This document shows positions 387 to 22,256 of a stretch of DNA of 64,000 nt, piece after piece. The first letter of the stretch is position 1. Every line of letters starts with the position of its first letter. The position numbers were made by a program, and so were the translations under genes. This DNA comes from Alkalicella caledoniensis (GTDB lineage Bacteria; Bacillota; Proteinivoracia; Proteinivoracales; Proteinivoracaceae), in contig NZ_CP058559.1 in the NCBI RefSeq assembly GCF_014467015.1, positions 930,001 through 994,000 of the forward strand, written 5' to 3'. The notes under the pieces were generated by a model. It had not been told where the DNA came from. It saw nothing but the letters and a program-made list of their open reading frames with translations, and did no database searches.

Positions 387-3300
387 CTATTCCATCAAAT
401 AATCCTGTCTCTCTTCCTCTGCTGCTATGAGTTCTTCTACGCTTACGTTTCCGCACATTTTCTCTGCTTGCCTCATTACTACCTTTAAGGCATTCTTCGC
501 TTGTTCTGGTGGATAATCATACTTCTTTAGTAGTCGCTTTATTATCCTTCTCATTCCTGCTTGGGCGCTTTTCCTGTGGTTCCAGTCTATTGTTATGTTG
601 TATCTTATGGCCATGGTTAGTTCCTGGGCTATTTTTTTTAGGGTTTCATCTTGTATTAATTCTTTTACTGCTTCGTCTGCCGTTAGGGCATCGTAAAATG
701 CTATTTCATCTTCGTTTAAGCCCAATGCCTTTTCTTCTTCTTTGATCTTTTTAAATTCATGGGCCATTTTTATTAGTTCTTCTATTACTTCAGCATTAGT
801 AATTGCTTGGTTGCGATATTTGTTCAGGGCCTTTTTGAGTTTTTCTGAGAATCTTTCAGACTTTACAAGGTTTCTTTTCTCCATTGCTTTAAGGTTACCT
901 TCTAGCAACTTTTTAAGTAACTCTACCGCTAAATTCTTATGTTTCATTTCCCTAACTTCATCTAAGAATTCTTCTGATAATATGGACACATCTGGTCTTT
1001 TTAATCCCATGGCATCAAATACATCTATAACCTCTTCTGAGATAATTGATCGCTCTAACATTTGTGTTACCCTAGCTTCTATTTCTTTTTTGGATTTAGG
1101 CACAACACTTCTTTCACCAAGCTTAGTTAAACTTGCCTTCACTGATTTAAAATAGCTTACTTCCAGTGCCTTTGCCTTACCTGTATCTGTGGCTGCACAT
1201 AGGGAATGGGCTTTAGCCAGCTCTATGGCAATCTTTTTAAAGTCCTTTTGTTCCCTCTCTGATTTTCCAAGGATAAAGTCCATCCCACCAGTTATGGCAC
1301 GAATTCTTTCAACCTGTGAAGTGCCCATATATTTTGAGTAATCAAATCCGTGCATGATACCTTGAAGCACTTCAAGTTTTTCTAGCATAATGGATATTGC
1401 TACATTTGTATCTATACCTGTATTTTGCTTATCTGAATCTGTATATTGTTTAAGGGCGCTTTTAAGGCTTTCAAGGATTCCTAGATAGTCAACAACTACA
1501 CCACCTGATTTATCTTTAAATACCCTGTTTACCCTGGCAATTGCCTGCATAAGGTTATGTCCTTTCATCGGCTTATCGATGTACATGGTATGCATGGATG
1601 GCACATCAAAACCAGTGAGCCACATATCCCTTACCAGAACTATTTTCAGTTCATCGTTGTTATCTTTCATCCTATTTGCTAGGGTATCTCTTCTTTGTTT
1701 ACCGCCCACATGTTTTTGTAGTTTTTCGTTGTCAGCTGCACTTCCTGTCATAACAACTTTTATCTTGCCTTTGTTGACATCGTCATTATGCCAATCAGGT
1801 CTTAGCTTAACTATTTCATCATAAAGTTCCACACAAATTCTACGACTCATACATACAACCATGGCTTTACCATCAATGGTCTTAGATTTGTCTTCAAAGT
1901 GATTAACGATATCTTCTGCTAGCTTTTTGATTCTATTGGGGGAACCTACAACTGCTTCCAGCCTAGACCAAACAGATTTACTTTTTTCCTTTTCGTTTTC
2001 CTCTTGTCCTTCAATAACTTCTTCAAATTCTTCATCTATTTTTATTAGCTCATTTTCATCAGCTTCTAGCTTGATTATTCTATTTTCATAATATATCTTT
2101 ACGGTTGCCTCATCTTCTACTGCTTGAGTCATATCGTAAATATCAATATATTCACCAAACACTGCAGGAGTTGATTTATCTTCCATTTCTATGGGTGTTC
2201 CAGTAAAACCAATGAACGATGCGTTAGGCAGTGCATCCCTTAAATACTTTGCATACCCATACTTTACTTCTCCTGTTTTCACATCGGTTTTAGCATCTAG
2301 TCCATACTGACTTCTGTGGGCTTCATCGGCAATTATAATTACATTTTTACGGTCTGTTAGCACAGGCATATCTCCATCTTCTGGTTTAAACTTTTGGATG
2401 GTGGTAAAGATAATACCCCCAGACTCCCTATCGTTTAATAGATCATAGAGTCCGTTAGTTTCTTTAGAGTTATCTTTTGCTTGCTGTTTTTTCTGTTCAT
2501 CTGTTAGTTTACGGATATTTGCTTGTTTAGGGGTTTGTCTAAGTATGTCTTGGGATTTTGAGAAGGTGCTAAATAATTGGTCATCTAAATCATTTCTGTC
2601 AGTAATAACTACAATGGTAGGGTTGTTAAGTTTCTTTACTAGTCCAGCGGTATAAAATACCATGGAAAAACTTTTCCCTGATCCTTGGGTATGCCAGATT
2701 ACACCAATCTTCCTATCGCCGTCTTCTTCGGTGGCTTCCTGGGTTTTATCAATGGCTTTTTTAACGGCAAAGTATTGGTGATATGCAGCCATTATTTTAA
2801 TAATTGTCTTTTTATCACCTATTTTATTGCCATCTGCATCTCTTTCTTCATCCCTAGACTCTTGGAATAATATGAAGTTTTGGATAATATCTAGGATACG
2901 TTTTTTTGCTAACGCACCAGAAAACATAACTTCATATTGAGGCTTAGATAAAGGCTCTACATTTTCACCGTCAATACTTCTCCAATTCATATACCGCTCT
3001 TCATTGGAAGTAATTGTCCCTACCTTGGCATTGATACCATCAGATAATATACAAAAGCCATTGTAATTAAATAGGGCTGGGATATCCCTTTTATATGTTT
3101 GGATTTGATTATAGGCACTTTCAATACCAACATTTTCATCACTGGCTGATTTAAGCTCTATGACAACTAGGGGTATACCGTTAACAAAAATAATTAGATC
3201 GGGTCTTCTCTCTTCATTCTCAAATACAGTAAACTGGCTAACAACTACATAATCATTATTACTAGGGTTCTTATAATCAACAATATGAGCCCTTTTAGTT

Positions 3301-3632
3301 CTGATATTTCCCTTGTCCTTATAGGATACTTCCACACCTTCTGTTAGCAGTCTATGAAAGTATCTGTTGTTCTCCTCAAGCATTGGACTATTAAAGGTAA
3401 TTATCTGCCTATATGCACTTTCAATGGCTTCAGGTGGTAACTCACGATTAATTTTGTACAATGCATCCCTTAGCCGTTGCTCAAGAATAACTTCCCGATA
3501 ATCTTTCCTCTCAGGGTAATCCCCCCCAGGAGAAATATCAGGCCCAAACACATGTGTATAACCTAATTCCTGCAAGATTTCTATGGCAGCCTGCTCTAAG
3601 AAATCCTCAGTGAAATTTGCGAATAAACTCAT
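387..3632 (-). CDS. hsdR: Type I restriction enzyme, R (motor and nuclease) subunit
   Basis: 1081 residues, the usual HsdR size. The N-terminal PD-(D/E)xK nuclease is visible as RPDLIIF (D near residue 147) followed by VIELK (E and K near 161-163). The superfamily 2 translocase follows, with Walker A GSGKS near 319-323 and a DEAH box in IIADEAHRS. The ATG at 3632 is preferred over the one at 3638, because the GGAGG lies only 2 bases from the latter and 8 from the former. HsdR cuts DNA only in complex with HsdM and HsdS, so with hsdM split by the prophage it should be inactive although the gene looks intact. It is downstream of hsdS in the same operon. Confidence 0.95.
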
Positions 3633-3668
3633 ACTCATAACCTCCTCGTACTTAGTTATGGAACAGTT

Positions 3669-4916
3669 CTAGTCTAAAGGCACGCGTATTTCTCCTGACA
3701 TAAGTCTAGGAAGTAGTGTGTCTCTAACTTTAATCAACCTTTTACTTTCGATTTTCAAGTTTGTAATTTCCTCGTACAGAGGTTTTATCATCACATTTAA
3801 TTTCTTATATAGCCTATCATTAGGTATTAAAACCTTTGAGTCAGAAAGATCTTTCCTTTTTATATGACCCATCGTTGTAGCTTTACTTTCAGCAATTCTT
3901 TTAAAATTTTCCAAATAATAATCCAGCCAAAGTATACAAAACCATTTATCATAGGTCTTAGGATTGACTTTAAACAAATGTTGATTTAATCCACATTTTC
4001 CGCCTGCCCAAATGTCTAGTAGCAAACTTCCTGACCAAGAAAAGATTAAGTCGCCATCATTTACTATATATTTTGCATCTATGCTTTCAGAGCATAGATC
4101 ACTTGATTCATCTGTAAATCCTTGCCTTAACTCCTTAATTTTTAATACAGGATAGGAGTGTTCATTTTCTTTAGGTCTAAACTTTTGCATTGCTATACCA
4201 TTTAGGTAATCTGCTATATCATCTAAAGCTTTAACTTCCCACCCCTTAGGAATCATCCCAAGTTCACTTTCAACCATTTCCCCACCACTGGATTTATATG
4301 GCTCTCCTTCTTCATTAGGGAAATCAAAATCCACAAACCACTGTTTAAAAATAGCCTGAGTCATTTCTTCTAGCTTTTTGTTAATTTGGTTGTTGACTTC
4401 TATTTTTTTATCTAGAGTTGAGAGGATATTACCAATTGCTTTTTGCTCTTCTACCTTTGGATATGCAATTGGGCATGATTTAAATGCTGAATGTTTTAAA
4501 TCTTTCTGTACACTCCCTGAAGCCACGCTATTAGAATATTTGTAAACAAAATCTGATTTTAAAAAGTAGTACAGAAAATACTTGTCAAACTTATCATAAT
4601 CTACTATTACCTTAAAACAGTTGTTGTGAACGCAACCTGAAATATCTGTGTAAACTAGGCCTACTTGGCCTGTCCTTGTATAAATAATATCATCTTTTGT
4701 TGCTACATATTGCTCTTTAATATCCTTTACAAACTCGCTAAACTCCCTTTTAGGTAAGTCAGTAATTTTAAGTAGCGGCATATATCCTGGTTTAAGGTTA
4801 TCTGTTCTTAAATCTTTAGAAATCTGAAGTCCTTGCCTTAGTTCAGCTATATTCCCAATACTGGTAACTGTCCAATCCTCTGGTACAACACCAAATAAAT
4901 TGTCTCTAGAACTCAT
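3669..4916 (-). CDS. hsdS: Type I restriction enzyme, S (specificity) subunit
   Basis: 415 residues with the typical HsdS layout: a first target recognition domain, a conserved helical spacer near the middle ([21 protein letters not shown]), a second recognition domain starting around [16 protein letters not shown], and a second helical region ending in [13 protein letters not shown]. The product gives sequence specificity to both methylation and cleavage. The ATG at 4916 sits inside the last codons of hsdM, a normal coupling for these operons, with a run of G upstream as ribosome binding site. A TTG at 4922 is an alternative. Lacking an intact HsdM partner it should not function at present. 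Confidence 0.93.
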
Positions 4917-5853
4917 ACCCAATCCCCCCTAGATTCTTCCTTATATCTTCCTCTAGGCGACGGGATCTTGTAAATAACTCACCTAACTCACTGGTCAGAT
5001 TCTCCATCTTTTCTTCAAATGAAACTCCATCATCTTCGATATCTTCAATTCCCACATATCTTCCAGGGGTTAGTACATATTCATGTTCCTGTACTTCTTT
5101 TAGTTTAGCTGATTTACAGAATCCTTTTAAATCTTCGTATTCTCCACCAGTATTTCGCCAGTTGTGGTAGGTTTCAGCTATCTTTTTTACATCTTCTTCT
5201 TTTAATTCCCTGTGTCTTCTGTCAATCATTTCCCCTAAGTTTCTTGCATCGATGAAAAGGATTTCTTTCTCTCTGCTACGGAACTTAGTATTATCTTTTT
5301 TGTTTCTGTTAAGTATCCATAGGCAAACCGGTATTCCTGTAGAGTAGAATAGTTTATCCGGCAGTGCAACAATAGCATCTACTAAATCATTTTCTATTAG
5401 ATTTTTCCTTATTACACCTTCGTTGGATGTATTTGAGCTTAATGATCCATTTGCAAGTACTATTCCTGCCACACCGTTCGGTGCTAGGTGATACACCATG
5501 TGTTGTAGCCAAGCGTAGTTGGCATTGCCTGCTGGAGGAGTTCCGAATTTCCATCTTACATCTTCTGTTAGTTGCTCTCCACCCCAGTCGCTTATGTTAA
5601 ATGGTGGGTTAGCTAAGATGTAGTCTGCTTTTAGTGTTTTGTGCATATCGTTATGGAAAGTATCGTCATGATGATCTCCTAGATTACCATCTAATCCCCT
5701 TATGGCTAAGTTCATTTTACATAACTTCCATGTAGTCGAATTCATTTCTTGACCATATATTGAAAGGTTTTCAATTTTACCTTGGTGTTCTTCAAGAAAT
5801 TTCTCACTTTGAACAAACATACCACCACTTCCACAGCATGGGTCTATGTTCAT
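4906..5853 (-). pseudogene. hsdM: hsdM, C-terminal part (interrupted by prophage)
   Basis: This frame holds the catalytic two thirds of a type I N6-adenine methyltransferase. It includes the AdoMet-binding motif [10 protein letters not shown] right at the start, and NPPF (in [10 protein letters not shown]) as motif IV. Only the first three codons (ATG AAC ATA, 5845-5853) come from the inserted element; host sequence begins at the GA core at 5843-5844. No convincing ribosome binding site precedes this ATG, so translation would be weak at best. The N-terminal part is at 62743-63384. Joining the two at the core gives [12 protein letters not shown] in frame and a protein of about 507 residues, a normal HsdM length. 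Confidence 0.95.
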
Positions 5854-6439: not shown

Positions 6440-6688
6440 CTACTTTTCTATACTAGCGCCATTTTTAGTGAAAAAATCAAATAAACTAATTAGTGATGCA
6501 GCAAAAATTGAGCCCATTATCATTTGAACTATTTGATTCACTTCAAAAAGTAGTGAAACAAAAACCAAAATTAATAATATAAACAAACTAATATATACTG
6601 TACCCGTCTTAAATAAATTTATGATATAACGTGCAATAATTAATGTAATTGCAAAAATGAACAGATCAAAATACTCTAATCCATCCAT
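6440..6688 (-). CDS. Small membrane protein, possible bacteriocin immunity protein
   Basis: 82 residues, mostly hydrophobic, with about two to three membrane segments (residues roughly 7-25, 31-48 and 52-70) and a short charged C-terminus. It starts inside the end of the bacteriocin gene (23-base overlap), so the two are translated from one message. Small hydrophobic proteins encoded directly after a bacteriocin gene are commonly its immunity protein. The immunity role here is inference from position and shape; I recognise no family. Confidence 0.55.
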   Translation of the reverse strand: MDGLEYFDLFIFAITLIIARYIINLFKTGTVYISLFILLILVFVSLLFEVNQIVQMIMGSIFAASLISLFDFFTKNGASIEK

Positions 6689-7043
6689 TTAGATTACCGT
6701 CCCTTCCATCAAGATGATTTGCTATCCTATTCGCTACTCCGCCAACTCCTCCACTTACTATAGTTCTCAGCCATGATGATACTAGTGCGTTTCCTACTTT
6801 AATTCCTGATGCACCCACTGCTTTAACAATTCCTGCGGCTAAAGCATTTCTCAACGACATAGAGCCCAGAACTACTTTCAGTCCGCCAGTAGCAACAGCA
6901 CCTCCAGCTGCTGCTAAAAAAGCGTAAGTTGCAGCTGTAATCGTGCCCGCTACACTCCATGTGGGTATACTAAACCCACCTTCCAAGTACATCATTTCTT
7001 CCTGATCAATCTCCACATAATTTTTAGGTAATACCATTTCCAT
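6666..7043 (-). CDS. Bacteriocin-like peptide precursor with double-glycine leader
   Basis: 125 residues. The start has the form of a class II bacteriocin leader: charged residues followed by EEMMYLEGG near residues 15-23. This matches the double-glycine site cut by peptidase-containing ABC transporters. The remaining ~102 residues are rich in glycine, alanine and hydrophobic residues (AAAGGAVATGG, SGGVGGVAN), as in pore-forming bacteriocins, though longer than most. AAGGAGG lies 8 bases before the first ATG. The dedicated transporter is not in the window and the neighbouring accessory gene is truncated, so export is doubtful unless another transporter serves. It could also be a different GG-leader secreted peptide. 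Confidence 0.68.
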   Translation of the reverse strand: MEMVLPKNYVEIDQEEMMYLEGGFSIPTWSVAGTITAATYAFLAAAGGAVATGGLKVVLGSMSLRNALAAGIVKAVGASGIKVGNALVSSWLRTIVSGGVGGVANRIANHLDGRDGNLNGWIRVF

Positions 7044-7146: not shown

Positions 7147-7800
7147 CTAGCTTCTAAAATTCAACATCCCCAGAATCCACTGTAAATAGGTCTCTTCCTT
7201 GTAAACAATTCTTGCCTCCACCGGCATGGCTCGAAGCAGTTCCACTACTTCTCCACTATTGCTTTCCAGTTGGCTTTTTTCAAGCTCCACCCGGAGGCGA
7301 TAAAGGACACTGACCCCTTCTGACGATTCATTTTGTATCGTTCCCGGTTCGATGAAGGTCACTTTACCGGGAAGTGTGCCAAACCGATACGTATTCAGCC
7401 CTGATATTGCAACCTTTACCGGTTTTCCCACCTCAACCCGGCTTCGATCCTGGGCATTGACATAGGCGTCAATGTATAAGCTTTCTTCTTTGTTTGCAAC
7501 CTCCCCGATGATTTGCCCTTGCTGAACCGCCATACCAATGGCCGTTGGGGAAAAATAATGCAGTTTCCCTTTATTGTTGGCTCTGACGTAATGAATGGCA
7601 TCCTGGTCTACTGCTGCAGCAAAGTTCGCTTCCAGCTCCACAAGTTGGCACGATAGGCTCATCTTGATGTCCTGAGTGTTTTTTTTGCATTTATCCGTAC
7701 GTGGAAACTTTTCTATCCCATTTTTGTACATTTGCTCGTTTGCGGGAACATATCCATAGAAATTCTGAAGATTTCTACGTGTGCGGAAACAAGTCAACAT
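7147..7800 (-). pseudogene. Fragment of a HlyD-type bacteriocin secretion accessory protein
   Basis: The C-terminal ~150 residues look like the membrane fusion proteins that work with bacteriocin ABC exporters: GKLHYFSPTAIGMAVQQG, followed by a beta-barrel-like segment with VNAQDRSRVEVGKPVKV. Complete relatives are usually about twice this length and start with a membrane anchor. Here there is no anchor, the first ~55 residues read as a poor match, and the frame ends 18 bases from the stop of the ATPase gene at 7818. It is most likely the 3' remnant of a gene cut away on the upstream side. It lies directly upstream of the bacteriocin gene, on the same strand. Confidence 0.65.
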
Positions 7801-7817: not shown

Positions 7818-9986
7818 TTAAACCTCTGTAAAATCAAATCGCGCTCTCTCATTTGCAACAAAACGCTCTGCGTGTATCATATAGTGATCTGGGACAATAT
7901 TAAAACGTCGGACATCTAGGGAATAAAGGTAATCATTTTCAATGTGATATGTTTCGTCTACATATTTCCTTAAGACATCATTGGTTTGACGAAGCCTTTC
8001 TCTGGCCTCTTTATCATGCTCTGTATAAGCCCTTAAGATAAGCATTTTTATGTATGAGGACGTCTCATTTGCATAGCGATCCATCAATTTTTCAGGGGTA
8101 CATTGCTCAATAACCAAATCGTAGTCAAATTCGGGAATGTATTGTTGGATAAAGCCTTTTCCATTTGCTCTTTGCTCTTCACTTAACTTGTTCTTTCCTT
8201 CAGAGTCAAAAGTTGGTTCAGATCGCCTATGTATGAGGCTTGAGAGTATGTTATAGGCATCAGACTCTTCTTTTGGTTTTCTATATTGATGTTCAATAAA
8301 TTTACGAAGACATCCTATTCTTGCAGCTATATCAATGTTTGAATCTTCAGCTATTTCTTTTAGTAAAACAACTGAAGACATTAAATCAGAGTTTTTTTGA
8401 ATAGGGGTACATGTTAAATTACCATCATTATTTACTAGGTAATTAGCACAGACGTAAGATGGATCTTGCTTTCCAGCACCAACTTGGACATAATCAATCA
8501 CTGGTTCAAAATCATGTGTTAACATCAACACGGTTCGCTGATAGAGACTATTATCTTTATCGCCGGTCTTGAAGAGTCTATTTATTATCGCATACTTTTT
8601 ATTACTGTCGAAAGATGATATCGGATCATCAAGTATTATTAAGTCAGGATTCCTGCTAATTGCATCAAACATAAATAATATTAATGCAAATGCGTTTTTT
8701 TCACCCCAGCTCAGATGCTTACTAGGAGAATTTAAATCTCCTGAATTTCCATCTGGCATTATAAATTTAAGAAATGCTCTAGCATTATTTTCACCATCAA
8801 GCTCTACATCAAACGAATACCTAAATCCCGCTATGGAAAGAAATTCATTTATGTCCAGTTTTCTATCTTTTATTTTATCTTGAATATATTTATTATATTT
8901 TCCAATTTCACCTTTAAGCACATTAACCTTATCTAAAAGATTGTCCACCTCCATATTAATCGTGCTAATTTCTTGCTTAGTAAGATCCGAGATAAAAAAA
9001 TCATCAATGGCCCTGAAATCGATTTTCATTTCATTTAATTTAGATTCTAAATCTGCAATATTATCTCTATCTACTGAAGCACCATTGAATGAGACAATAG
9101 AGGTTAACCTTTTATAAAGATAATCTGCTTCAGTACAGAGCTTGGTTAATTGTGTTTCGAGGACGTCCAAATCTTCTTTAACACCAAATAAAGAAATTAA
9201 TTCCTCGGTCTTTTTTTCATCTAAATATGGCTGTAAAGCTTCTAGTGCTTTTGATATTGCAGCTGCAATTTCAACACTGGCCTTGTCAAAACTATCAGCA
9301 AATACTCTGTTTATGGTACTTGTCTTTTCAGAGTCATTAGTTGAGCAATAAGGACAACAGCCTTTACTACCAAATTGATCATATCCTTGTAATCGCCATG
9401 TTGCCCATTTAGAAACAGTGTTTTTTTCAAAGAATGGTTTTAAGTCAGTCAGTTCAGCAGGAGGATTGAAATATGCACCTTTGCCCTCAAGAATTCCTTT
9501 AGTTCCTCCCCTTCTAGCAATTTTATTATTGCTAGTCATCTTAATCTTGTCTATCAAATCACCAATATTACTTTGAAGGTTTACAATCTCTTGACGCTCA
9601 GTAATAGTGGTTTTAACTGTTGATAACGCATCATCAATATTTTTCTTTGCATTATCGTATTCATTTGAACGAATCAGAACCTCAAATGTATTTTTAATGA
9701 GGGTGTTGGTTTGGTAGACATATTGACGGACATATTCCTCATCAAATATTGCTATATTATCTGATGAAAATCCTTCTATATGCGGCTGAACATCCTCATT
9801 ACTGATCCCATATGGTGCAAGTTCTGTTAATGCTTTTTGCTGAGATATAAGCGTAATGGCTCTTACCATCGTTGATTTCCCGGTACCATTACGACCAAAC
9901 ATGATGTTAAGTTTATTGGAATAAATCGGCAATTCTCCTTGTGCTATGTTATTGCAATTCTGAATGTTAATCGTATAATCAGACAT
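7818..9986 (-). CDS. ABC-type ATPase resembling RloC/PrrC anticodon nucleases
   Basis: 722 residues. Walker A is GRNGTGKST (31-39), the ABC signature region is LSWGEKNA (425-432), and Walker B is LIILDDP (449-455). A CPYC pair at 211-214 lies between predicted helical segments, like the zinc hook of Rad50 and RloC. In the C-terminal part RKFIEH (561-566) fits the Rx4H motif of HEPN ribonucleases, the fold predicted for PrrC/RloC anticodon nucleases. Such proteins cut tRNA when a linked restriction system is inhibited, which would suit its place after the type III-like genes. The ABC part is clear; the nuclease role is inference. AAGGAGG lies just before the ATG. Confidence 0.72.
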   Translation of the reverse strand: MSDYTINIQNCNNIAQGELPIYSNKLNIMFGRNGTGKSTMVRAITLISQQKALTELAPYGISNEDVQPHIEGFSSDNIAIFDEEYVRQYVYQTNTLIKNTFEVLIRSNEYDNAKKNIDDALSTVKTTITERQEIVNLQSNIGDLIDKIKMTSNNKIARRGGTKGILEGKGAYFNPPAELTDLKPFFEKNTVSKWATWRLQGYDQFGSKGCCPYCSTNDSEKTSTINRVFADSFDKASVEIAAAISKALEALQPYLDEKKTEELISLFGVKEDLDVLETQLTKLCTEADYLYKRLTSIVSFNGASVDRDNIADLESKLNEMKIDFRAIDDFFISDLTKQEISTINMEVDNLLDKVNVLKGEIGKYNKYIQDKIKDRKLDINEFLSIAGFRYSFDVELDGENNARAFLKFIMPDGNSGDLNSPSKHLSWGEKNAFALILFMFDAISRNPDLIILDDPISSFDSNKKYAIINRLFKTGDKDNSLYQRTVLMLTHDFEPVIDYVQVGAGKQDPSYVCANYLVNNDGNLTCTPIQKNSDLMSSVVLLKEIAEDSNIDIAARIGCLRKFIEHQYRKPKEESDAYNILSSLIHRRSEPTFDSEGKNKLSEEQRANGKGFIQQYIPEFDYDLVIEQCTPEKLMDRYANETSSYIKMLILRAYTEHDKEARERLRQTNDVLRKYVDETYHIENDYLYSLDVRRFNIVPDHYMIHAERFVANERARFDFTEV

Positions 9987-10008: not shown

Positions 10009-10048
10009 CCGTAAAATCAACTAACCATGGATTTTACGGGCTTTTTTT
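10009..10048 (+). terminator. Hairpin with T-run between restriction and ATPase genes
   Basis: CCGTAAAATC (10009-10018) pairs perfectly with GATTTTACGG (10030-10039), and a T-run follows on the plus strand. It is oriented to stop plus-strand (antisense) transcription. On the minus strand, where the genes are, the hairpin has no T-tail, so it may act only as a transcript-stabilising structure there. Confidence 0.5.
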
Positions 10049-13000
10049 ATAATGAATCAATAACTGACAACAAATTCTGATAGGTATCCACATCATGATA
10101 CTTCACTTCACTTGTAGACAACTCATTAAATAGCTTCTTTGCACAGGTAATCTTAGCTTGTTCTATCGGTCTCAATTGAAGGCTATCCATTGTGCCTTTC
10201 GTTTCTGCTATGAAGAAAATATGTTTTACAGCACCTTTCTTAAATGAAATCGCCCAGTCTGGTGAATACTTCCCAACTGGAGTCGGGATATAAAAACCAC
10301 GAGGTCCTCTTGGAAGTTTGGCATAAACTACTACTTCATCTGCGCTATCCAAGTCCTCGGCAAACCGTCTTTCAATGCTATCTGTCGCTGTTCCGTCTGT
10401 AAAAATATAATCCTGTATGGCATGTTTAGCTTTAAAGGCTTTAGCATACTCGTCAGAAGCACGACTCATATTGAAAATATCCTGTGAATAGGGTTCCTCT
10501 GCACTTGGGGTGTAGGTGATATGTTCTACCACAACCGCTGCCTTTTGGCGATTAATGATATCAGCTACTTTAGAAATGAATTCTTCAGGATTCTCCCTAA
10601 ACAGCCATAGTTTATCTTGCTTCATTCCTGACAATATTGCTGCTGCAGAACGTCGTGTTAGTGTTGTAGCTTCAGCAATTTTACCAACGAGATCATATTC
10701 AGCAAAACTCCCTTGTGCACGATCAAGTTTTTTTGTAACTGTGTGCTCCACATTGAACTCTGTACCAGTTTGTTCGCCTCTTGTTAAGGTGTATGTCAAC
10801 TTGGATACTCGTAATTCACTATTGATAGCAACGATTGACTTTTTAATAAGCTCTTCACTATTAAAATCTACAGAATATGCATATCTTTTGTTGATTTTTT
10901 CCCATAGTTCCTTAAAGTCTTTCCAGTTTTCATTCAATGGATTTTCTTTGACTTTGGTTTCATGAGCATTTCCAGCCATTTCTTTGAGGATGCTCGGATC
11001 AAATATTGCCTGCACAAGCTTGTGGATGTTTTCTCCAAGCGGCTCTAACTCTGGCTTAAGTGGCGCAAAACTACCTAGTTCAGCTGCAGCTCTATAGGTA
11101 TCGGTCACACTACCATTATCATCGACATAATCATTACGAACAAGATAATTGTATACTGCTGTAGCTTCTGCGACTGTAATTGAATGCGTATCATCCCCAA
11201 TCACAACATTCTTACCGGCAAAATAGTCTACACTGGCTTTTGTTGGTCGCTCATAAAGGTCAGATTTAATTTCTTTCTGCAAATCTGCTACAAACCCAGC
11301 ATAACTTTCACTTGCGACAACTGTCAGTACATTCAAACCATGCACAAGGGTTTCTCCGCAAGCATCAAGGTCTTGTCTCTCTCCCGTTTCATTGACACAA
11401 AGACGCAATCCTCGTCCTACTTCTTGTCTTTTTGCAGTTGCGTTATCTGAATGCTTCAACGTACATATCTGGAACACATTAGGATTATCCCAGCCTTCTC
11501 TAAGTGCAGAGTGTGAGAAAATAAATCTTGTAGGTTCTTCAAATGCTAATAATCTTTCCTTATTTTTTAATATGAGATCATAGGCACTAATATCATCCGA
11601 AAATTCGCTCCCACGCTTAACTTTACTATCAATTGCTCTACCTTTCTTATCTATAGAAAAATACCCTTTGTGCGTTTCTGTAGTATCAATCCCTCTTAAA
11701 TATTTTTGATAATCCGTGGGGAAAAGAGTTAGTCGCTCATTCAAGGCAGCATTATACTCTTCCTCGAAAATCTTACCGTACTCACTCACAATTTCATTTC
11801 CATCATCATCGTACTGGCGATACTTCGCTACTTCATCAATAAAAAAAAGTGATAGACATTTGATGCCTTGTTCAAATAGCTTCTCTTCTTTATCAAAGTG
11901 GGAAGCGATTGTCTCGCGGATTTGAATTCTACGAATATCATCTTCATTTACGTTTCCACTCGCTTCACCAGGCTCCAAAGTATCTCCATTTGAAAATGTC
12001 ACCATGGAGCGAATCGGATCTACTTCAGCAATGGAGATACCCTTATACTCCTCCAGGCCATTAGATGCCGTATACAAACTGTCCCCCACACTCAGCAGTT
12101 GCATCTCTCTTTTAATACCACTTCCACGCTTTACTTCAAATTCCAAGCGAGCACGGGGCGGCTTCTTACGATCAATGACAATGGCAGCAAGATACATATA
12201 TCGATTAGTTCCACTGAGATTCTTAAGATCAAATCCTTTCACCTCAATTTTCTTAACCAGCTTCTTTTTGAAAGCATCAAGTGCATCTAAAACATATATA
12301 AGGTTATGGGATGTTTTATGAGTGGCTGAAAAATTCAAAGAGAATAACGGATTGAAGTTCTTTTTTAGCGCATTCTGAGTTGCTGCTCCACCCATCTTTT
12401 GAGGCTCATCCAGAATAATGATGGGTCGGTTCGCCTTTATAACATCAATTGGGCGACGGGAACCAAACTCGTCACGTTTCGTGTAGATAATACGAGCCGC
12501 CTCATTTCCTTTTCTACCTTCAACATTCTTTTCCTCGTTCATCGTTGTATTAAAGGCCTGGGTATTAATTATCATTACATTGATTCCAGAGCTTTGTGAA
12601 TACTCATCAAGCTGGTGTAAATTCGAAGAGTTGTACACAAAGAACCGAGCTTTAATACCATATAGCTCCATGAAGTGTTCTTGTGTCATTTCAAAAGACT
12701 TCTTGACACCTTCACGAATTGCGATGCTAGGCACTACAACGATAAATTTACTCCAACCATAAGCCTTATATAATTCAAACATTGTCTTAATGTAGACATA
12801 GGTTTTACCAGTACCAGTTTCCATCTCAACATCTAAAGATACGAGACCCAGACCATCTTCCAGAGCAGATGAATTCTTTATATTATTAGCAGTCTGTATG
12901 GCGCGTATATTTTTCAGCAATTGGTCTTTACTTAATTCTATATCTGCATTACGATAACCCGTTTCATATTCAGAGTCTTGCTCATCTAAAGTGGTCTGTA

Positions 13001-13124
13001 CGTTCCGTTTGCCTATATCTCGACGATATTTTAAGAATCCTTGTTTTGGCTGTCCGTTAAATACTTTGACAATACTTTCTGTAGCCTCTAATTGGAAGGG
13101 TTGTATCTTGAACTTAAACTTCAT
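10047..13124 (-). CDS. res: Type III-like restriction subunit (helicase plus nuclease)
   Basis: 1025 residues. Superfamily 2 helicase motifs are visible: GTGKT at 104-108, the DEPQ box at 239-242, and HSALREGWDNPNVF with QEVGRGLRL further on. The C-terminal PD-(D/E)xK nuclease is seen as PDW (D956) and ETK (E974, K976). This is the arrangement of type III Res proteins, which act as a complex with Mod. The ATG follows the mod stop without a gap (TAAATG), with GGAGGG inside the end of mod, so the two are co-translated. All motif residues needed for activity appear present. Confidence 0.9.
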   Translation of the reverse strand: MKFKFKIQPFQLEATESIVKVFNGQPKQGFLKYRRDIGKRNVQTTLDEQDSEYETGYRNADIELSKDQLLKNIRAIQTANNIKNSSALEDGLGLVSLDVEMETGTGKTYVYIKTMFELYKAYGWSKFIVVVPSIAIREGVKKSFEMTQEHFMELYGIKARFFVYNSSNLHQLDEYSQSSGINVMIINTQAFNTTMNEEKNVEGRKGNEAARIIYTKRDEFGSRRPIDVIKANRPIIILDEPQKMGGAATQNALKKNFNPLFSLNFSATHKTSHNLIYVLDALDAFKKKLVKKIEVKGFDLKNLSGTNRYMYLAAIVIDRKKPPRARLEFEVKRGSGIKREMQLLSVGDSLYTASNGLEEYKGISIAEVDPIRSMVTFSNGDTLEPGEASGNVNEDDIRRIQIRETIASHFDKEEKLFEQGIKCLSLFFIDEVAKYRQYDDDGNEIVSEYGKIFEEEYNAALNERLTLFPTDYQKYLRGIDTTETHKGYFSIDKKGRAIDSKVKRGSEFSDDISAYDLILKNKERLLAFEEPTRFIFSHSALREGWDNPNVFQICTLKHSDNATAKRQEVGRGLRLCVNETGERQDLDACGETLVHGLNVLTVVASESYAGFVADLQKEIKSDLYERPTKASVDYFAGKNVVIGDDTHSITVAEATAVYNYLVRNDYVDDNGSVTDTYRAAAELGSFAPLKPELEPLGENIHKLVQAIFDPSILKEMAGNAHETKVKENPLNENWKDFKELWEKINKRYAYSVDFNSEELIKKSIVAINSELRVSKLTYTLTRGEQTGTEFNVEHTVTKKLDRAQGSFAEYDLVGKIAEATTLTRRSAAAILSGMKQDKLWLFRENPEEFISKVADIINRQKAAVVVEHITYTPSAEEPYSQDIFNMSRASDEYAKAFKAKHAIQDYIFTDGTATDSIERRFAEDLDSADEVVVYAKLPRGPRGFYIPTPVGKYSPDWAISFKKGAVKHIFFIAETKGTMDSLQLRPIEQAKITCAKKLFNELSTSEVKYHDVDTYQNLLSVIDSL

Positions 13125-15071
13125 TTACAATACCCTCCTTATGGTACTTGGACTATATGTGTTGAAAATCTGCTCAACATTTACTAGAGCACTATCATTC
13201 ATAAAGCTACTGTCTCGAAATACAGCATAATAAGGTTGTTTCTTAGCAATTTCAGTAATCATGGCAGTATCAACTCTATCAAAGCATGCAATCAGGTAGT
13301 TATCATTAACATTGTACACATTCCCACTCTGCTCAATTTTAGCAGAAAGTGGAATGCCTAGATCAAGCATTACCTGGAACAATAAATCTTCATTAGTCCG
13401 ATCAGGTTTGATGTTATCCATAAAGCCTTCCAAATTGAATCCCATTTGTGAATATTCTTCAGGCGTGTAATAAACCTCTTTCATGTTACTGCTATCTAAT
13501 TTTAATACTCGGAAACCAGTATCAAGGTTTTGAGTTGTTAAACCAGCTTCTTCTTTTATCTTTGCTCCGGCACGACGAATGCGTTCTTTTCCGATTTCAC
13601 AGATATTCTTAAAACCAGATTTATATGCTACTGATTTTTCATCACAAGGTTCAGGTAATTGAACCATAATATATTTACGCTTTCCACCATCTTCTGAATT
13701 ATTCTGCATCACAGCATGAGCTGTAGTTGAAGAACCTGAAAAGAAATCTAAAACGATATCACCATCATTAGCATGAATGTTTACGATTTGTTTTAACATG
13801 TCCAAAGGTTTAGGATTTTCGAAGATTAATGATCCAAAAACTTTTTTTTGCCACCTAGTATCCACAGAGCTGTCAAAATACCAAAAATTATCCGGAACCA
13901 TAAGATCATCGATTTCTATATAATCTTTTAATCCAGGAGGTGTTGAATCATCCCCATACCAAATCAAGTCTAACTCCTGTAACCTCTCTAATTCTTCTAA
14001 TGATTTACCCCAACCACGCCTAGGGATAGTACAATTCTTACCTGTAGTTGGGTTAATAATTGTATAATTTTTGGGTCCATTCTCACGAGACAAATCAGCA
14101 TCTTTAAATACGCCTTTTTCATCCACCTTATTCCATCTACTTAGATGTGCATACTTTGGTCTTGTGTAAAGCTCTTTAATTTCTTCAGTAATTTCATCTA
14201 GTGATAATCCTTTTCTCTTAAGCTGCTCAAATTTAGTTGCTATATCTCTAGATCCTTTTTTTTGAATTCTCCACACAGTTTCACTTATATTGGTTTTTGA
14301 TTTAGCATAGATGAGCATATATTCCGTTGTTACTCCGATCAGTTTTGTTTGATTCTTCATAGAGTTGTTTTTATGAATTACTCTAGCAATGAAATTATGT
14401 TCCCCAAATATTTCATCACATATTTTTTTTAAGTTATCAACCTCATTATCATCAATGCTTATGAAAATTACGCCATCTTCAGCTAAAACATCTCTTGCTA
14501 CACGTAATCGAGGATACAGCATATTTAGCCAGTCAGTATGGTACCGTCCATTGCTATTGAAGTTTGATGTAAGGCGATTACCTTGATCATCATACTGACT
14601 ATCTCGATGCAAGAACTCGTCCGTTTCTTCGGTAAAGTGATCCTCATAAATAAAGTCTTTCCCCGTATTATATGGAGGGTCGATATAAATCATTTTTACT
14701 CTATTTAAATAGGTTTCTCGTAGTAACTTCAACACGTCAAGATTGTCTCCTTCAATATAAAGGTTCTCTGTTTTATCAAAGTCTACGCTTTCCTCTCTAG
14801 AAGGTCGTAAAGTGGCAGCTATTGGAGCATTTGCTAAAAGAACTGATTTTTTCTTATCTGGCCAGGTAAACTGGTACCTCTCTTCTTTTCCTGAAACCAC
14901 ATGGGTGTTTATTTCTTGGGCCAGAACCTCTGCATCTATAGCTCGAATAACCTCTCCATTTTCATCTACTGTTTCTGTCACTGCATTTGGAAACATTTTT
15001 GCTAGAGCACTGAAATTAGCATCTGCAATATTAGCTGTGTGCATAGTTAACTTATCTTGTTTTTCCATCAT
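13125..15071 (-). CDS. mod: Type III-like DNA adenine methyltransferase
   Basis: 648 residues. The catalytic motif DPPY (131-134, in MIYIDPPYNTGK) comes before the AdoMet-binding motif DFFSGS (442-447). This is the order of beta-class N6-adenine methyltransferases and of type III Mod proteins. The long middle segment between them is the usual place of the target recognition domain. The start overlaps the stop of the DUF4391 gene (TAATGATG), and the stop abuts the res start, so the three form a tightly coupled unit. It should both methylate the recognition site and provide specificity for Res. Confidence 0.92.
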   Translation of the reverse strand: MMEKQDKLTMHTANIADANFSALAKMFPNAVTETVDENGEVIRAIDAEVLAQEINTHVVSGKEERYQFTWPDKKKSVLLANAPIAATLRPSREESVDFDKTENLYIEGDNLDVLKLLRETYLNRVKMIYIDPPYNTGKDFIYEDHFTEETDEFLHRDSQYDDQGNRLTSNFNSNGRYHTDWLNMLYPRLRVARDVLAEDGVIFISIDDNEVDNLKKICDEIFGEHNFIARVIHKNNSMKNQTKLIGVTTEYMLIYAKSKTNISETVWRIQKKGSRDIATKFEQLKRKGLSLDEITEEIKELYTRPKYAHLSRWNKVDEKGVFKDADLSRENGPKNYTIINPTTGKNCTIPRRGWGKSLEELERLQELDLIWYGDDSTPPGLKDYIEIDDLMVPDNFWYFDSSVDTRWQKKVFGSLIFENPKPLDMLKQIVNIHANDGDIVLDFFSGSSTTAHAVMQNNSEDGGKRKYIMVQLPEPCDEKSVAYKSGFKNICEIGKERIRRAGAKIKEEAGLTTQNLDTGFRVLKLDSSNMKEVYYTPEEYSQMGFNLEGFMDNIKPDRTNEDLLFQVMLDLGIPLSAKIEQSGNVYNVNDNYLIACFDRVDTAMITEIAKKQPYYAVFRDSSFMNDSALVNVEQIFNTYSPSTIRRVL

Positions 15072-15679
15072 TACACTCCTTTAAGTTGTTCTTTCAACTG
15101 TTTTATTTCTTCTACTAGATCCCATTTTCGTCTAGGCTGTCTTTCATTCATTGCCTTTCTTTCAAGTGAAGCTATTTGTTTCTTGAGTTTCTCTTTGAAC
15201 TCATTCTGAATAATAACTTCATCAAGACCTTTTCCGCCTATCGGTTCTATCCCAGCAATGTCAGCAACAAGCGAATCCCATGTAGCTTTTAAGTTTAGAC
15301 CCTTAAGTTTAAACCTCCATTCATCGATAGGTCTGTTATCTGACATTAGTACTCTATTAGCCCGATGAACTGCGAATTTTACTGTATCCTCATACTGCAA
15401 CGCAAAAAGCATGTTCTGATCAATTAGCTTTGATAAAAGGATGATGTTCTTTTTATCGCAACCCATTGTCTTCATCTGAACTAAAATAATGTAAATAGCT
15501 GCAACCTCTTCATCTGCAACGATACTCACTGTTTGAGGAGAAATCTCAGCAACAATTGAAAGGCGATTGATTTGTTCATCAAACAGCTTTCTGTCAGATG
15601 CACTAGGTTTAAACTTATCAAAGATTGCTTTCTTAGGAAGCTGTTTATTTATTTCAGTAGATTTAGGTAATCCAAACAT
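15071..15679 (-). CDS. DUF4391 protein linked to the restriction genes
   Basis: 202 residues; the N-terminal pattern (LPKKAIFDKF, FDEQINRL) is that of the DUF4391 family. The C-terminal 40 residues are strongly charged and likely helical or coiled coil (KEKLKKQIASLERKA). DUF4391 genes are commonly found between a helicase gene and type III-like mod and res genes, as here. No biochemical role is known to me. The size and acidic/basic patches allow an adaptor that ties the helicase to the Mod-Res complex, but this is speculation. Confidence 0.8.
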   Translation of the reverse strand: MFGLPKSTEINKQLPKKAIFDKFKPSASDRKLFDEQINRLSIVAEISPQTVSIVADEEVAAIYIILVQMKTMGCDKKNIILLSKLIDQNMLFALQYEDTVKFAVHRANRVLMSDNRPIDEWRFKLKGLNLKATWDSLVADIAGIEPIGGKGLDEVIIQNEFKEKLKKQIASLERKAMNERQPRRKWDLVEEIKQLKEQLKGV

Positions 15680-15688
15680 TTTACCCCA

Positions 15689-18600
15689 TCACCTCACATT
15701 CACGAAACAGACCAGCTCAAAATCATCTAATCCATCAATTGTGTTCTCTGCTAATGATATTTGCTTTCCGGAAAGGAAACTATCGATTGAGTCATCCTCA
15801 TTGAGATCCACAATAGACTTGACAGCAAAATATAATAGGTCTGAATAGTGCCGCATATTTCTACCGTCTTTCGTTTCGGCGTTGAACTGCTTGCAAAGGT
15901 CAAGCAGCGGCTCTGATTTCCCTTTACAAAGCTGGCGAAATACATCGAGAAGCTTTTTCGGTTGAAGGTGGTCAATATGGACCACTGAACCGTCACGCAC
16001 ATATACCATATAAAATGGGTGTAGTTGATTTTTATTGTGGTGATTTATGCTCGTGTTTATATTCTTTAGGATAAAGATAGTTCCCTTTGGAGTGCTCTCA
16101 TTTCCGTTTACCACCGCATGAAGTCCAAAGGGTACTTTATCCAGATTATCATGCTTCTTAACATAATCTAGAAGATCAAGCCTAAACTCATTTAGCCCTA
16201 GATCCATTATGGAAACACCACTTTGCATATCTTCGATATCAACTACTTCATTTTGCAATTTTTCAAGTTGGGCTTTACGATATTCCAGGTCTCCCAGTTC
16301 CTCTGGATCGATTGGATTATCGTCACCTGTTGAAGTCATAACAGAAGCTTTCATCCGGGTCTCAACTCGACCTTTTAATTCGAGATATTTATCCAGGCCA
16401 ATATTAGGCCAGAAATTAACGAGCTGGATGGTTTCATTTTGACTGCCAATACGGTCAACTCGACCAAAACGCTGAATAATCCGGACTGGATTCCAGTGTA
16501 TATCATAGTTTACACAGTAATCACAATCCTGTAAGTTTTGACCCTCAGAAATACAGTCTGTAGCGATGAGTATATCTATCTCAACTGGCTTATTGGGCAT
16601 TAGTAATTCTTTATCTTTAGAGCGTGGTGAAAATAGCGTAAGGATTGTATTCATATCCGTACGTGGAAGCTTCACTGTAGTTCTTCCATCCGTTGTTCCT
16701 GTAATCATTGCTGTATGAAGCCCAAATCTCTCTTTGACAATCGGCGCTATCTGAGCATACAAATAATCTACCGTATCGGAGAATGCAGAAAAGATAAGTA
16801 CCTTTTTGTTATTCTCATTGAAAGGACTCTGAATCTTTTCAGCAATCAAATCAACCAATGTTTGTAATTTAGTGTCATGTTCAGGAGTAATGTCACGAAT
16901 CATAGAAGATAAAAGCTGGAGTATTTCCGAATCCTCTGATAGCTTCTCCCTCCAGGTAATATAATCCATGTCCCCGAGATCAATATCAATCTTCTTAGCA
17001 TTGTTTCCAAAGAATGTCGTATTTCGGTCATCTCCATCAAAGTCAGTTTCTACAATCTCTCGGGCGTTAAATATCTGTCTATTTCCATGCTTATATGCAT
17101 CAATAGCCTCTATGGTTCCATTAATGAGCTGACGAACCCTTTCTAGTGTAATACTGAAAGAAACAACAGAACTCTCAAGTCTTTTCAAGAGATTAATAGA
17201 CATCAACCTGCGAATACCAATCTCACGTCCAGCACGATCAATATTGACGTTTGAATCTATGTACTTATGCCGCCTACTATCAAGCAAGAAATCAGTTGGT
17301 ATATAAACAGAAAGATTAAGTTTCATAAGCAGATCATAGATTTCGTCATAATCAATTGCGCCTGATAGATTAGTGAGCTTTGGCCTTAGTGCCAGTGGCT
17401 TAAGTCGTTCTGGGAATTTCCCAATAGCTTCAATATTATAATACTTCTCGATGTGTTTTCTTGATCGAGCTATGGTTACACTATCAAGCATGGTAAAGAA
17501 ATCGAAGTCAAGTGAGCGTAATAGATTCTCTGTGGTTCTCTCTTCTGGGTCCAGTTTGCTCCATTTATTGAAAGCGGTTTGCGCGCCACGGAATATGACA
17601 TCGATTGGCTTTGCAGTATCAAGCTTGTCATTAATTAAAGCAGGATTACCTTCATATGCAAGTTCAAGCTGGTGCCTCAAATCAGAAAAACCATTGTTGA
17701 CAGGTGTTGCAGAAAGCATAAGAACTTTGGTTTTTACACCCTGTCTGATCACTTTATTTAATAATTGCAGATACCGGTTTTCTCTTTTGTTATCACCACG
17801 GCCTGAGTAATCACCGCCATTTCGGAAGTTATGACTCTCGTCAATGACAACCAGATCATAGTTACTCCAATTCAGTTTCCCTAAATCAATATTTCCAGAC
17901 TTCCCATGTTCTCGTGACAAGTCGGTATGATAGAGAACATCATATCGTAACCGATCTGCTGCAATAGGATTATTAAGATAGTTTTCTTTAAATGTAAGCC
18001 AGTTATCTCCCAGTTTCTTTGGGCAAAGCACAAGCACATTTCTATTTCGTAGTTCGTAATATTTAATAACAGCAAGGGCAGTAAACGTTTTACCTAAACC
18101 AACGCTATCCGCAAGAATACATCCGTTAAAATTCTCTAGCTTATTGATTATTGCAAGAACAGCATCTTGTTGAAAATCATAGAGTTTCCCCCAAATTTTG
18201 GACTCTTTAAATCCTGTGGCCTCATTTGGTAATACATCCTCATTAATATCAGCCAGGAACTCATTGAAAATATTATAAATAGCAACAAAATAGACAAACT
18301 CAGGTGAGTTTTCATTATATGCTGCTGTGATGCCATCAATCACCTGGTCTGTTACGTCCTGCAAAAGATTCTTGTCATTCCAGATCTGATCAAACATTTT
18401 CACGTATTCATCCGCAAGTGGTGTATCAATTCGATTTACAAGGCTCATAATGTTGTTCCCACGTTCACAGCCTAGATCTGCAGTGGTAAATGAGTTTAGT
18501 GGCGAATAAGCTATAGATTCGTCAGGCTTTACCACGCTGAGAAAGCTTCCAATAGAACCACCGGTTACGTTGGATCGAAAGTTCACTTTTCTACGAATCC

Positions 18601-18919
18601 AATCAGCGCATTCACGAGCAATTGCCTTTTGATTTAGTTCATTTCGCAGTTTGACTTCAAACTCTGTTCCATACAAAGAACGCTCTCGATTAAGCTGCGG
18701 AATATAGAACTCACGCTTTTCTCTGGAAGTTTTCTCATTCAGAAATGTAGGAGAGGTAAAAATAAAGCGCAATTCTTCCACGCCATCTAGTTGCTTTCTC
18801 AAAGCTTCATAAGCATAAATAGAAAAGCAGGCTGCAGCTATTGAAATTTTATCCCCTTTTGAGACTGTTTTTGACAGATCGTCTTTCACGGTTTTATTCA
18901 CATTATCGAGAACTTGCAT
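15689..18919 (-). CDS. SNF2-type helicase with PLD-like N-terminal domain
   Basis: 1076 residues. Residues 1-150 resemble a phospholipase D-like domain with a degenerate active site: the region ending in NSFTTADLG keeps the NFT-like part, but no HxK is visible. A superfamily 2/SNF2 motor follows, with GLGKT at 274-278, DESH at 360-363, SEGQNLQDCDYCVNYD, and the motif VI region RFGRVDRIGSQNE. The C-terminal ~250 residues are uncharacterised. The gene ends 9 bases before the DUF4391 start. Its constant partnership with DUF4391, Mod and Res suggests it is part of one defence complex, acting as translocase or remodeller on foreign DNA. Confidence 0.85.
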   Translation of the reverse strand: MQVLDNVNKTVKDDLSKTVSKGDKISIAAACFSIYAYEALRKQLDGVEELRFIFTSPTFLNEKTSREKREFYIPQLNRERSLYGTEFEVKLRNELNQKAIARECADWIRRKVNFRSNVTGGSIGSFLSVVKPDESIAYSPLNSFTTADLGCERGNNIMSLVNRIDTPLADEYVKMFDQIWNDKNLLQDVTDQVIDGITAAYNENSPEFVYFVAIYNIFNEFLADINEDVLPNEATGFKESKIWGKLYDFQQDAVLAIINKLENFNGCILADSVGLGKTFTALAVIKYYELRNRNVLVLCPKKLGDNWLTFKENYLNNPIAADRLRYDVLYHTDLSREHGKSGNIDLGKLNWSNYDLVVIDESHNFRNGGDYSGRGDNKRENRYLQLLNKVIRQGVKTKVLMLSATPVNNGFSDLRHQLELAYEGNPALINDKLDTAKPIDVIFRGAQTAFNKWSKLDPEERTTENLLRSLDFDFFTMLDSVTIARSRKHIEKYYNIEAIGKFPERLKPLALRPKLTNLSGAIDYDEIYDLLMKLNLSVYIPTDFLLDSRRHKYIDSNVNIDRAGREIGIRRLMSINLLKRLESSVVSFSITLERVRQLINGTIEAIDAYKHGNRQIFNAREIVETDFDGDDRNTTFFGNNAKKIDIDLGDMDYITWREKLSEDSEILQLLSSMIRDITPEHDTKLQTLVDLIAEKIQSPFNENNKKVLIFSAFSDTVDYLYAQIAPIVKERFGLHTAMITGTTDGRTTVKLPRTDMNTILTLFSPRSKDKELLMPNKPVEIDILIATDCISEGQNLQDCDYCVNYDIHWNPVRIIQRFGRVDRIGSQNETIQLVNFWPNIGLDKYLELKGRVETRMKASVMTSTGDDNPIDPEELGDLEYRKAQLEKLQNEVVDIEDMQSGVSIMDLGLNEFRLDLLDYVKKHDNLDKVPFGLHAVVNGNESTPKGTIFILKNINTSINHHNKNQLHPFYMVYVRDGSVVHIDHLQPKKLLDVFRQLCKGKSEPLLDLCKQFNAETKDGRNMRHYSDLLYFAVKSIVDLNEDDSIDSFLSGKQISLAENTIDGLDDFELVCFVNVR

Positions 18920-22082: not shown

Positions 22083-22179
22083 AATTTTTCTCCCTTGCAA
22101 CTCATAAGCAAGTGAATGCAACTCACTGCAAATGAGAAGTATATTCCGCTCAATTTCGAAGCAAATCCCTATGAAAGTA

Positions 22180-22214
22180 AGCTGATGCCAGGAGTTCTGG
22201 TATCGGCTTTTTTT
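22180..22214 (+). terminator. Plus-strand terminator upstream of the phage early genes
   Basis: AGCTGATGCCAG (22180-22191) pairs with CTGGTATCGGCT (22197-22208), with one G-T and one mismatch, followed by a run of seven T. It would block plus-strand readthrough from the defence region into the early genes starting at 22304. No plus-strand gene precedes it. Confidence 0.7.
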
Positions 22215-22256
22215 CATTTTGAAATAAAAGCAGTTCCTACTAATTCCTATTTATTC

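What the first reader, a model, noticed from the sequence alone, without database searches (positions are those of the whole stretch)
7818..9986. ABC ATPase with CPxC hook and Rx4H motif next to restriction genes: candidate RloC-like tRNA nuclease
The protein has all ABC motifs, a CPYC pair in the insertion between Walker A and the signature (211-214), and RKFIEH at 561-566 fitting the HEPN-type Rx4H pattern. RloC and PrrC share these traits, and PrrC is activated when its restriction partner is blocked. The protein is short for RloC and follows a type III-like rather than type I system, so it may be a new branch.
Basis: partly seen in the sequence, partly recalled or inferred. Interest (0 to 1): 0.6.

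Follow-up and report, generated by a model that had tools for sequence, protein, structure and literature searches.

The report
RloC-like backup toxin beside restriction genes
A Rad50-like ATPase with a zinc-hook motif and an uncharacterised helical tail sits at the end of a type III restriction operon; its close relatives sit at the end of BREX and Hachiman anti-phage operons, so it is most likely a self-contained second-line toxin of the RloC/PrrC style, though its RNA-cutting activity is inferred and not shown.

Summary
The gene (7818-9986, minus strand, 722 aa) is real and is the last gene of a type III restriction cassette. It has a complete ABC ATPase and a CPYC motif at 211-214. PADLOC places it full-length (E=1e-193) in candidate group PDC-S06, model PDLC04889.

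H566 is not conserved in the wider family. R561 and E565 are present in 20 of 20 members, 66-70 residues after the H-loop, where PrrC and RloC carry the Arg-x3-Glu of their catalytic triad. The third residue is unresolved: H681 is invariant (KxxNExxH, as in some RloC), H586 is present in 17 of 20.

A HEPN fold was not found. The tail is a confident all-helical domain (pLDDT 87) with no PDB match, and RloC/PrrC profiles stop before it. So this is RloC-like in layout, not a proven RloC.

Close relatives end a type III, a BREX or a Hachiman operon; distant ones stand alone on conjugative plasmids (544 of 5,426 complete E. coli genomes carry one) or beside type I or II R-M genes. Best reading: a mobile backup toxin, new variant of a known kind. 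RNA cleavage is untested.

The parts
7818..9986 (-). ABC ATPase with CPxC insert and C-terminal helical domain, PADLOC PDC-S06 (PDLC04889), 722 aa
9345..9356 (-). CPYC motif (residues 211-214), in register with the RloC CxxC
8292..8306 (-). R561-x3-E565, present in all 20 members examined; position of the PrrC/RloC Arg-x3-Glu
7944..7967 (-). K674-x6-H681, candidate catalytic His motif (KYVDETYH), H681 invariant
8229..8231 (-). H586, rival candidate for the catalytic His, 17 of 20 members
7821..8381 (-). C-terminal all-helical domain (residues 536-722), no known fold matched
10009..10039 (-). hairpin between res and the ATPase gene (CCGTAAAATC/GATTTTACGG); a hairpin with a different stem sequence lies at the same place in L039
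10047..13124 (-). type III restriction subunit Res
13125..15071 (-). type III methyltransferase Mod
15071..15679 (-). DUF4391 protein of the cassette
15689..18919 (-). SNF2-type helicase, PADLOC C3a139 'HKD+Snf2'

Best explanation
The protein is a self-contained ABC-ATPase toxin that works like RloC/PrrC: a Rad50-type ATPase head with a CPxC hook keeps a C-terminal nuclease silent and releases it when DNA-targeting defence fails or DNA damage is sensed. The released domain disables the cell, most likely by cutting RNA and probably tRNA, with R561, E565 and H681 (or H586) as the active site. In this genome it is the backup to a type III restriction system; in relatives the same gene is plugged onto the end of BREX or Hachiman operons. 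Shown here: the architecture, the conservation and the gene neighbourhoods. Inferred: toxicity, RNA cleavage, the trigger and the identity of the catalytic His.
For: Rad50/SMC-type head (3qku Z 16.4, rmsd 5.3, 288 residues aligned). ABC plus CPxC in register with RloC. Arg-x3-Glu in 20 of 20 members at 66-70 residues after the H-loop, against 67-84 in PrrC and 75-87 in RloC relatives. H681 invariant in K-x-x-[ND]-[ED]-x-x-H; an RloC relative has KFVNELSH at its catalytic His. Last gene of type III cassettes (window, L018, L039), after BrxL in L021, after HamA-HamB in L040. RloC itself lies inside a BREX-like operon in a genome of the same family (L069). Distant members are mostly solitary, which fits a one-gene effector.
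Against: The C-terminal domain is not recognised by RloC/PrrC/AAA_13 profiles and matches no solved fold, HEPN included. The Glu-to-His spacing (20 to H586, 115 to H681) is outside the PrrC (31) and RloC (36-52) range, and no Ser precedes either His. The motif resemblance is not significant within this one protein (shuffle frequencies 0.61 and 0.33). Most neighbours of distant members match no PADLOC defence model.
Confidence: 0.55

Rival explanations
1. The protein is a toxin with the same regulatory head, but its C-terminal helical domain is a new catalytic or inhibitory fold that does not cut tRNA (for example a different RNase, DNase or translation blocker).
For: Confident helical model without any PDB match (pLDDT 86.8, pTM 0.83); the conserved block HIEN (681-684) goes beyond the RloC motif.
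Against: Arg-x3-Glu at the PrrC/RloC position in every member points to the same active site.
Confidence: 0.25
2. The protein is not an effector but an SMC/Rad50-like sensor or DNA-handling helper that improves the neighbouring restriction, BREX or Hachiman system.
For: Weak ATPase-region similarity to LmuB and mad3; operon position after nucleases and helicases.
Against: Distant members stand alone on plasmids and prophages without a partner, and the protein carries its own conserved C-terminal domain with toxin-like residues.
Confidence: 0.2

Closest known systems
RloC anticodon nuclease (AAA_13, PF13166; PADLOC PDC-S06 models such as PDLC04887)
   Same: Rad50-like ABC head, CxxC insert in register, size range, Arg-x3-Glu after the H-loop, occurrence next to R-M or BREX genes
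   Different: C-terminal domain not matched by the RloC profile (AAA_13 match ends at profile position 572 of 713, against 711 in RloC orthologues); Glu-to-His spacing outside 36-52; no Ser before the His
PrrC anticodon nuclease (PADLOC PDLC02360)
   Same: ABC head, Arg-x3-Glu about 70 residues after the H-loop, restriction-operon link
   Different: PrrC is 341-416 aa without a hook and sits in type I loci; the profile match is weak (hhalign probability 30)
PADLOC candidate PDC-S06, model PDLC04889
   Same: Full-length match, E=1e-193; the E. coli plasmid protein WP_000350635 also matches full-length, E=3e-286
   Different: Nothing; this is the family it belongs to, and I found no functional study of it

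Membership tests
PADLOC PDC-S06 (PDLC04889) | full-length profile match | tested here: met
   E=1.1e-193 over residues 5-712 of 722, profile 2-689 of 693
RloC | Rad50-like ABC ATPase head | tested here: met
RloC | CX2C zinc-hook in the insert | tested here: met
   CPYC 211-214, CPxC 20/20, in register with RloC; zinc binding and hook geometry not tested, pLDDT below 50 at 204-210
RloC | length 658-897 aa | tested here: met
   722 aa
RloC | catalytic Arg-X3-Glu | tested here: met
   R561/E565, 20/20 members, conserved distance from the H-loop
RloC | Glu-X36-52-His, Ser often before His | tested here: not met
   spacing 20 (H586) or 115 (H681; 103-115 in the family), no Ser
RloC | C-terminal domain of the AAA_13/RloC profile | tested here: not met
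   AAA_13 match ends at profile position 572 of 713; RloC orthologues reach 711; hhalign to RloC ends at residue 525
RloC | anticodon nuclease activity | not testable with these tools
   needs expression and tRNA sequencing
PrrC | short ABC protein (341-416 aa) in a type I R-M locus | tested here: not met
   722 aa with insert, in a type III cassette; the nearby type I HsdM ORF lacks its N-terminal part
HEPN RNase | HEPN fold | tested here: inconclusive
   domain 536-722 predicted at pLDDT 86.8; no Foldseek hit under E 2.7, best VIA Z 3.8; no PrrC/RloC structure found in the PDB copy
HEPN RNase | conserved Rx4-6H motif | tested here: not met
   H566 not conserved; the alternative has Lys (K674-x6-H681)

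The most novel reading that the evidence does not exclude
This PDC-S06 branch is a general backup toxin, with a new C-terminal RNase fold, that guards several unrelated DNA-targeting defences (type III and possibly type I/II R-M, BREX, Hachiman) by sensing their failure; the same module circulates alone on enterobacterial conjugative plasmids.
Probability: 0.25. Interest if true: 0.7.

Novelty: new variant of a known kind. Interest (0 to 1): 0.5.

Why it matters
PrrC is the classic case of a toxin that punishes phages for disabling restriction. If this branch works the same way, that logic extends to type III restriction, BREX and Hachiman through one exchangeable gene. A relative is on plasmids in about one in ten complete E. 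coli genomes, so it can be tested in ordinary laboratory strains.

Tried and rejected
Rx4H at 561-566 as the active site: rejected, H566 is not conserved. HEPN fold by structure search: no match in PDB or BFVD for the C-terminal domain, which does not exclude it. C-terminal homology to RloC/PrrC by profile: not significant (probability 1-5; the best RloC stretch was the KxxNExxH motif, E 0.05, while the best PrrC stretch lay elsewhere and would favour H586). Short-motif scoring matrix: the H681 motif ranks first in 14 of 20 members but is not significant in the window protein. A phage-borne copy: none in the annotated phage records. RloC relatives in viral contigs: none found. Distances between R561, E565, H586 and H681 could not be measured because model coordinates are not released. 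MAFFT misplaced a gap next to LR[RK]xxE in two alignments; the R/E conservation was therefore recounted by motif. A literature search found PDC-S06 named in only four papers; the one I opened only lists it. Two relevant papers were not held, so earlier descriptions may exist.

Full report
WHAT IS THERE. It is the last gene of a co-directional cassette: SNF2-type helicase (PADLOC 'HKD+Snf2'), DUF4391, type III Mod, type III Res, then this ATPase. PADLOC matches it full-length to PDC-S06 model PDLC04889 at E=1e-193; Pfam gives AAA_13 at 3e-17.

THE ATPASE AND HOOK. The AlphaFold2 model (mean pLDDT 81.7) has a Rad50/SMC-type head (3qku Z 16.4, rmsd 5.3, 288 residues). A profile of 13 family members aligns with an RloC profile at 99.5% probability over residues 193-524, with CPYC opposite the RloC CxxC. 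CPxC is present in all 20 diverse members examined. The model is poor around the motif (pLDDT below 50 at 204-210), so hook geometry is not shown. At 722 aa the protein is within the published RloC range of 658-897 (PMC2610378).

THE ACTIVE SITE. Rx4H occurs in 37% of shuffles of this protein, and H566 is confined to the close clade plus L002. R561 and E565 are present in 20 of 20 members. RloC and PrrC use Arg-x3-Glu plus a downstream His (PMC2610378). The Arg lies 66-70 residues after the H-loop His here, 67-84 in PrrC relatives and 75-87 in RloC relatives, and a weak profile alignment with PrrC puts the pair in register. I take this as probable homology of that helix. The His is open. H681 is invariant in K-x-x-[ND]-[ED]-x-x-H; RloC relatives have RVVNERSH, RMLNEDSH, KFVNELSH at the catalytic His. 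But the spacing from E565 is 115, against 36-52 in RloC. H586 has spacing 20 and is present in 17 of 20. A scoring matrix from RloC/PrrC ranks the H681 motif first in 14 of 20 members, yet is not significant in the window protein alone.

THE C-TERMINAL DOMAIN. Folded alone (residues 536-722) it is all-helical and confident (pLDDT 86.8, pTM 0.83), but neither Foldseek nor the second aligner found a relative (best E 2.7, best Z 3.8), nor did BFVD, Pfam or PDB sequences. RloC orthologues match AAA_13 to its end (position 711), whereas this protein and its E. coli relative stop at 572. So the domain is either a strongly diverged RloC-like nuclease with an insert or a different fold. No PrrC/RloC structure was found in the PDB copy by sequence, so the fold search could not have shown that match.

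NEIGHBOURHOODS. Close relatives (64-98% identity): L018 and L039 carry the same type III cassette; L038 keeps a Res remnant; in L021 the gene follows MTase, PglZ and BrxL (BREX); in L040 it follows HamA-HamB (Hachiman) with an HsdR before them; L041 has DUF2779 upstream, about 700 bases away; L020 has PDC-S53 after it; L019 and L022 show no clear defence partner. The window gene and five of these nine relatives therefore follow a defence gene or its remnant; this is a small sample, some contigs are cut close to the gene, and no background rate was measured. Against L018, the ATPase gene is 98-99% identical in DNA while DUF4391-Mod-Res is 66-83%: the restriction core was exchanged while the ATPase stayed, or the ATPase recombined in. 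Distant relatives (about 30%) are mostly solitary on plasmids and prophages. One enterobacterial plasmid group places it beside a cytosine methyltransferase and type II endonuclease, and one E. coli plasmid has type I hsdMSR about 3.4 kb upstream, beyond an IS1 and two other genes. In complete E. coli genomes 725 of 5,426 have a match, 544 over at least 80% of the gene; 750 of 763 places are on plasmids. A true RloC orthologue lies inside a BREX-like operon (PglXI, RloC, BrxH, PglZ) in a genome of the same family as the window's organism (L069).

MECHANISM. By analogy with PrrC, which its type I R-M partner silences and phage anti-restriction releases, and RloC, which its own head silences and DNA damage releases (PMC3710099), I propose a second-line toxin: the ATPase senses failure of DNA restriction or damaged DNA and frees the C-terminal nuclease, which stops translation. 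Architecture, conservation and location are shown; toxicity, RNA cleavage, trigger and catalytic His are inferred. Backup effectors at BREX loci are a known theme (PMC12839542).

VERDICT. It works like RloC in layout but fails two RloC membership features, so I file it only as PDC-S06/PDLC04889, a new variant of a known kind.

Noticed in passing
window 19242-22217 (-): NACHT ATPase with a SNaCT14 C-terminus; its N-terminus matches the first 169 positions of a 490-position HamA model (PDLC00164), which in L040's HamA lie outside the matched nuclease part, so it probably shares an extra N-terminal domain and not the HamA nuclease.
   Followed up: partly
window 387-5853 (-): Type I R-M genes hsdR and hsdS with an hsdM ORF that lacks roughly its first 190 residues; no continuation was seen in any frame upstream, so the system is probably broken.
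   Followed up: partly
window 6666-7043 and 7147-7800 (-): A small protein with a double-glycine (LEGG) leader, weakly bacteriocin-like, and a fragment of an HlyD-type secretion protein, between the ATPase gene and the type I genes.
   Followed up: no
window 10009-10039: Hairpin between res and the ATPase gene; L039 has a hairpin with a different stem sequence at the same place. Read on the other strand it ends in a T run, so it may be a terminator for antisense transcription or limit the ATPase's expression.
   Followed up: partly
window 10300-15700 against L018: The DUF4391-Mod-Res core is 66-83% identical in DNA while both flanks are 86-99%, which suggests exchange of the restriction core; DUF4391 diverges together with Mod (67% and 60% protein identity).
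   Followed up: partly
L068:2003-8001 (+): An RloC orthologue lies, with one unmatched 475-aa gene between, before a 72% identical copy of the window's HKD-Snf2 helicase.
   Followed up: partly
L026:6442-13207 (+): In an Aliarcobacter plasmid the family member lies after SbcC/D-like and WYL genes and before a NucC-like PD-(D/E)xK protein.
   Followed up: no
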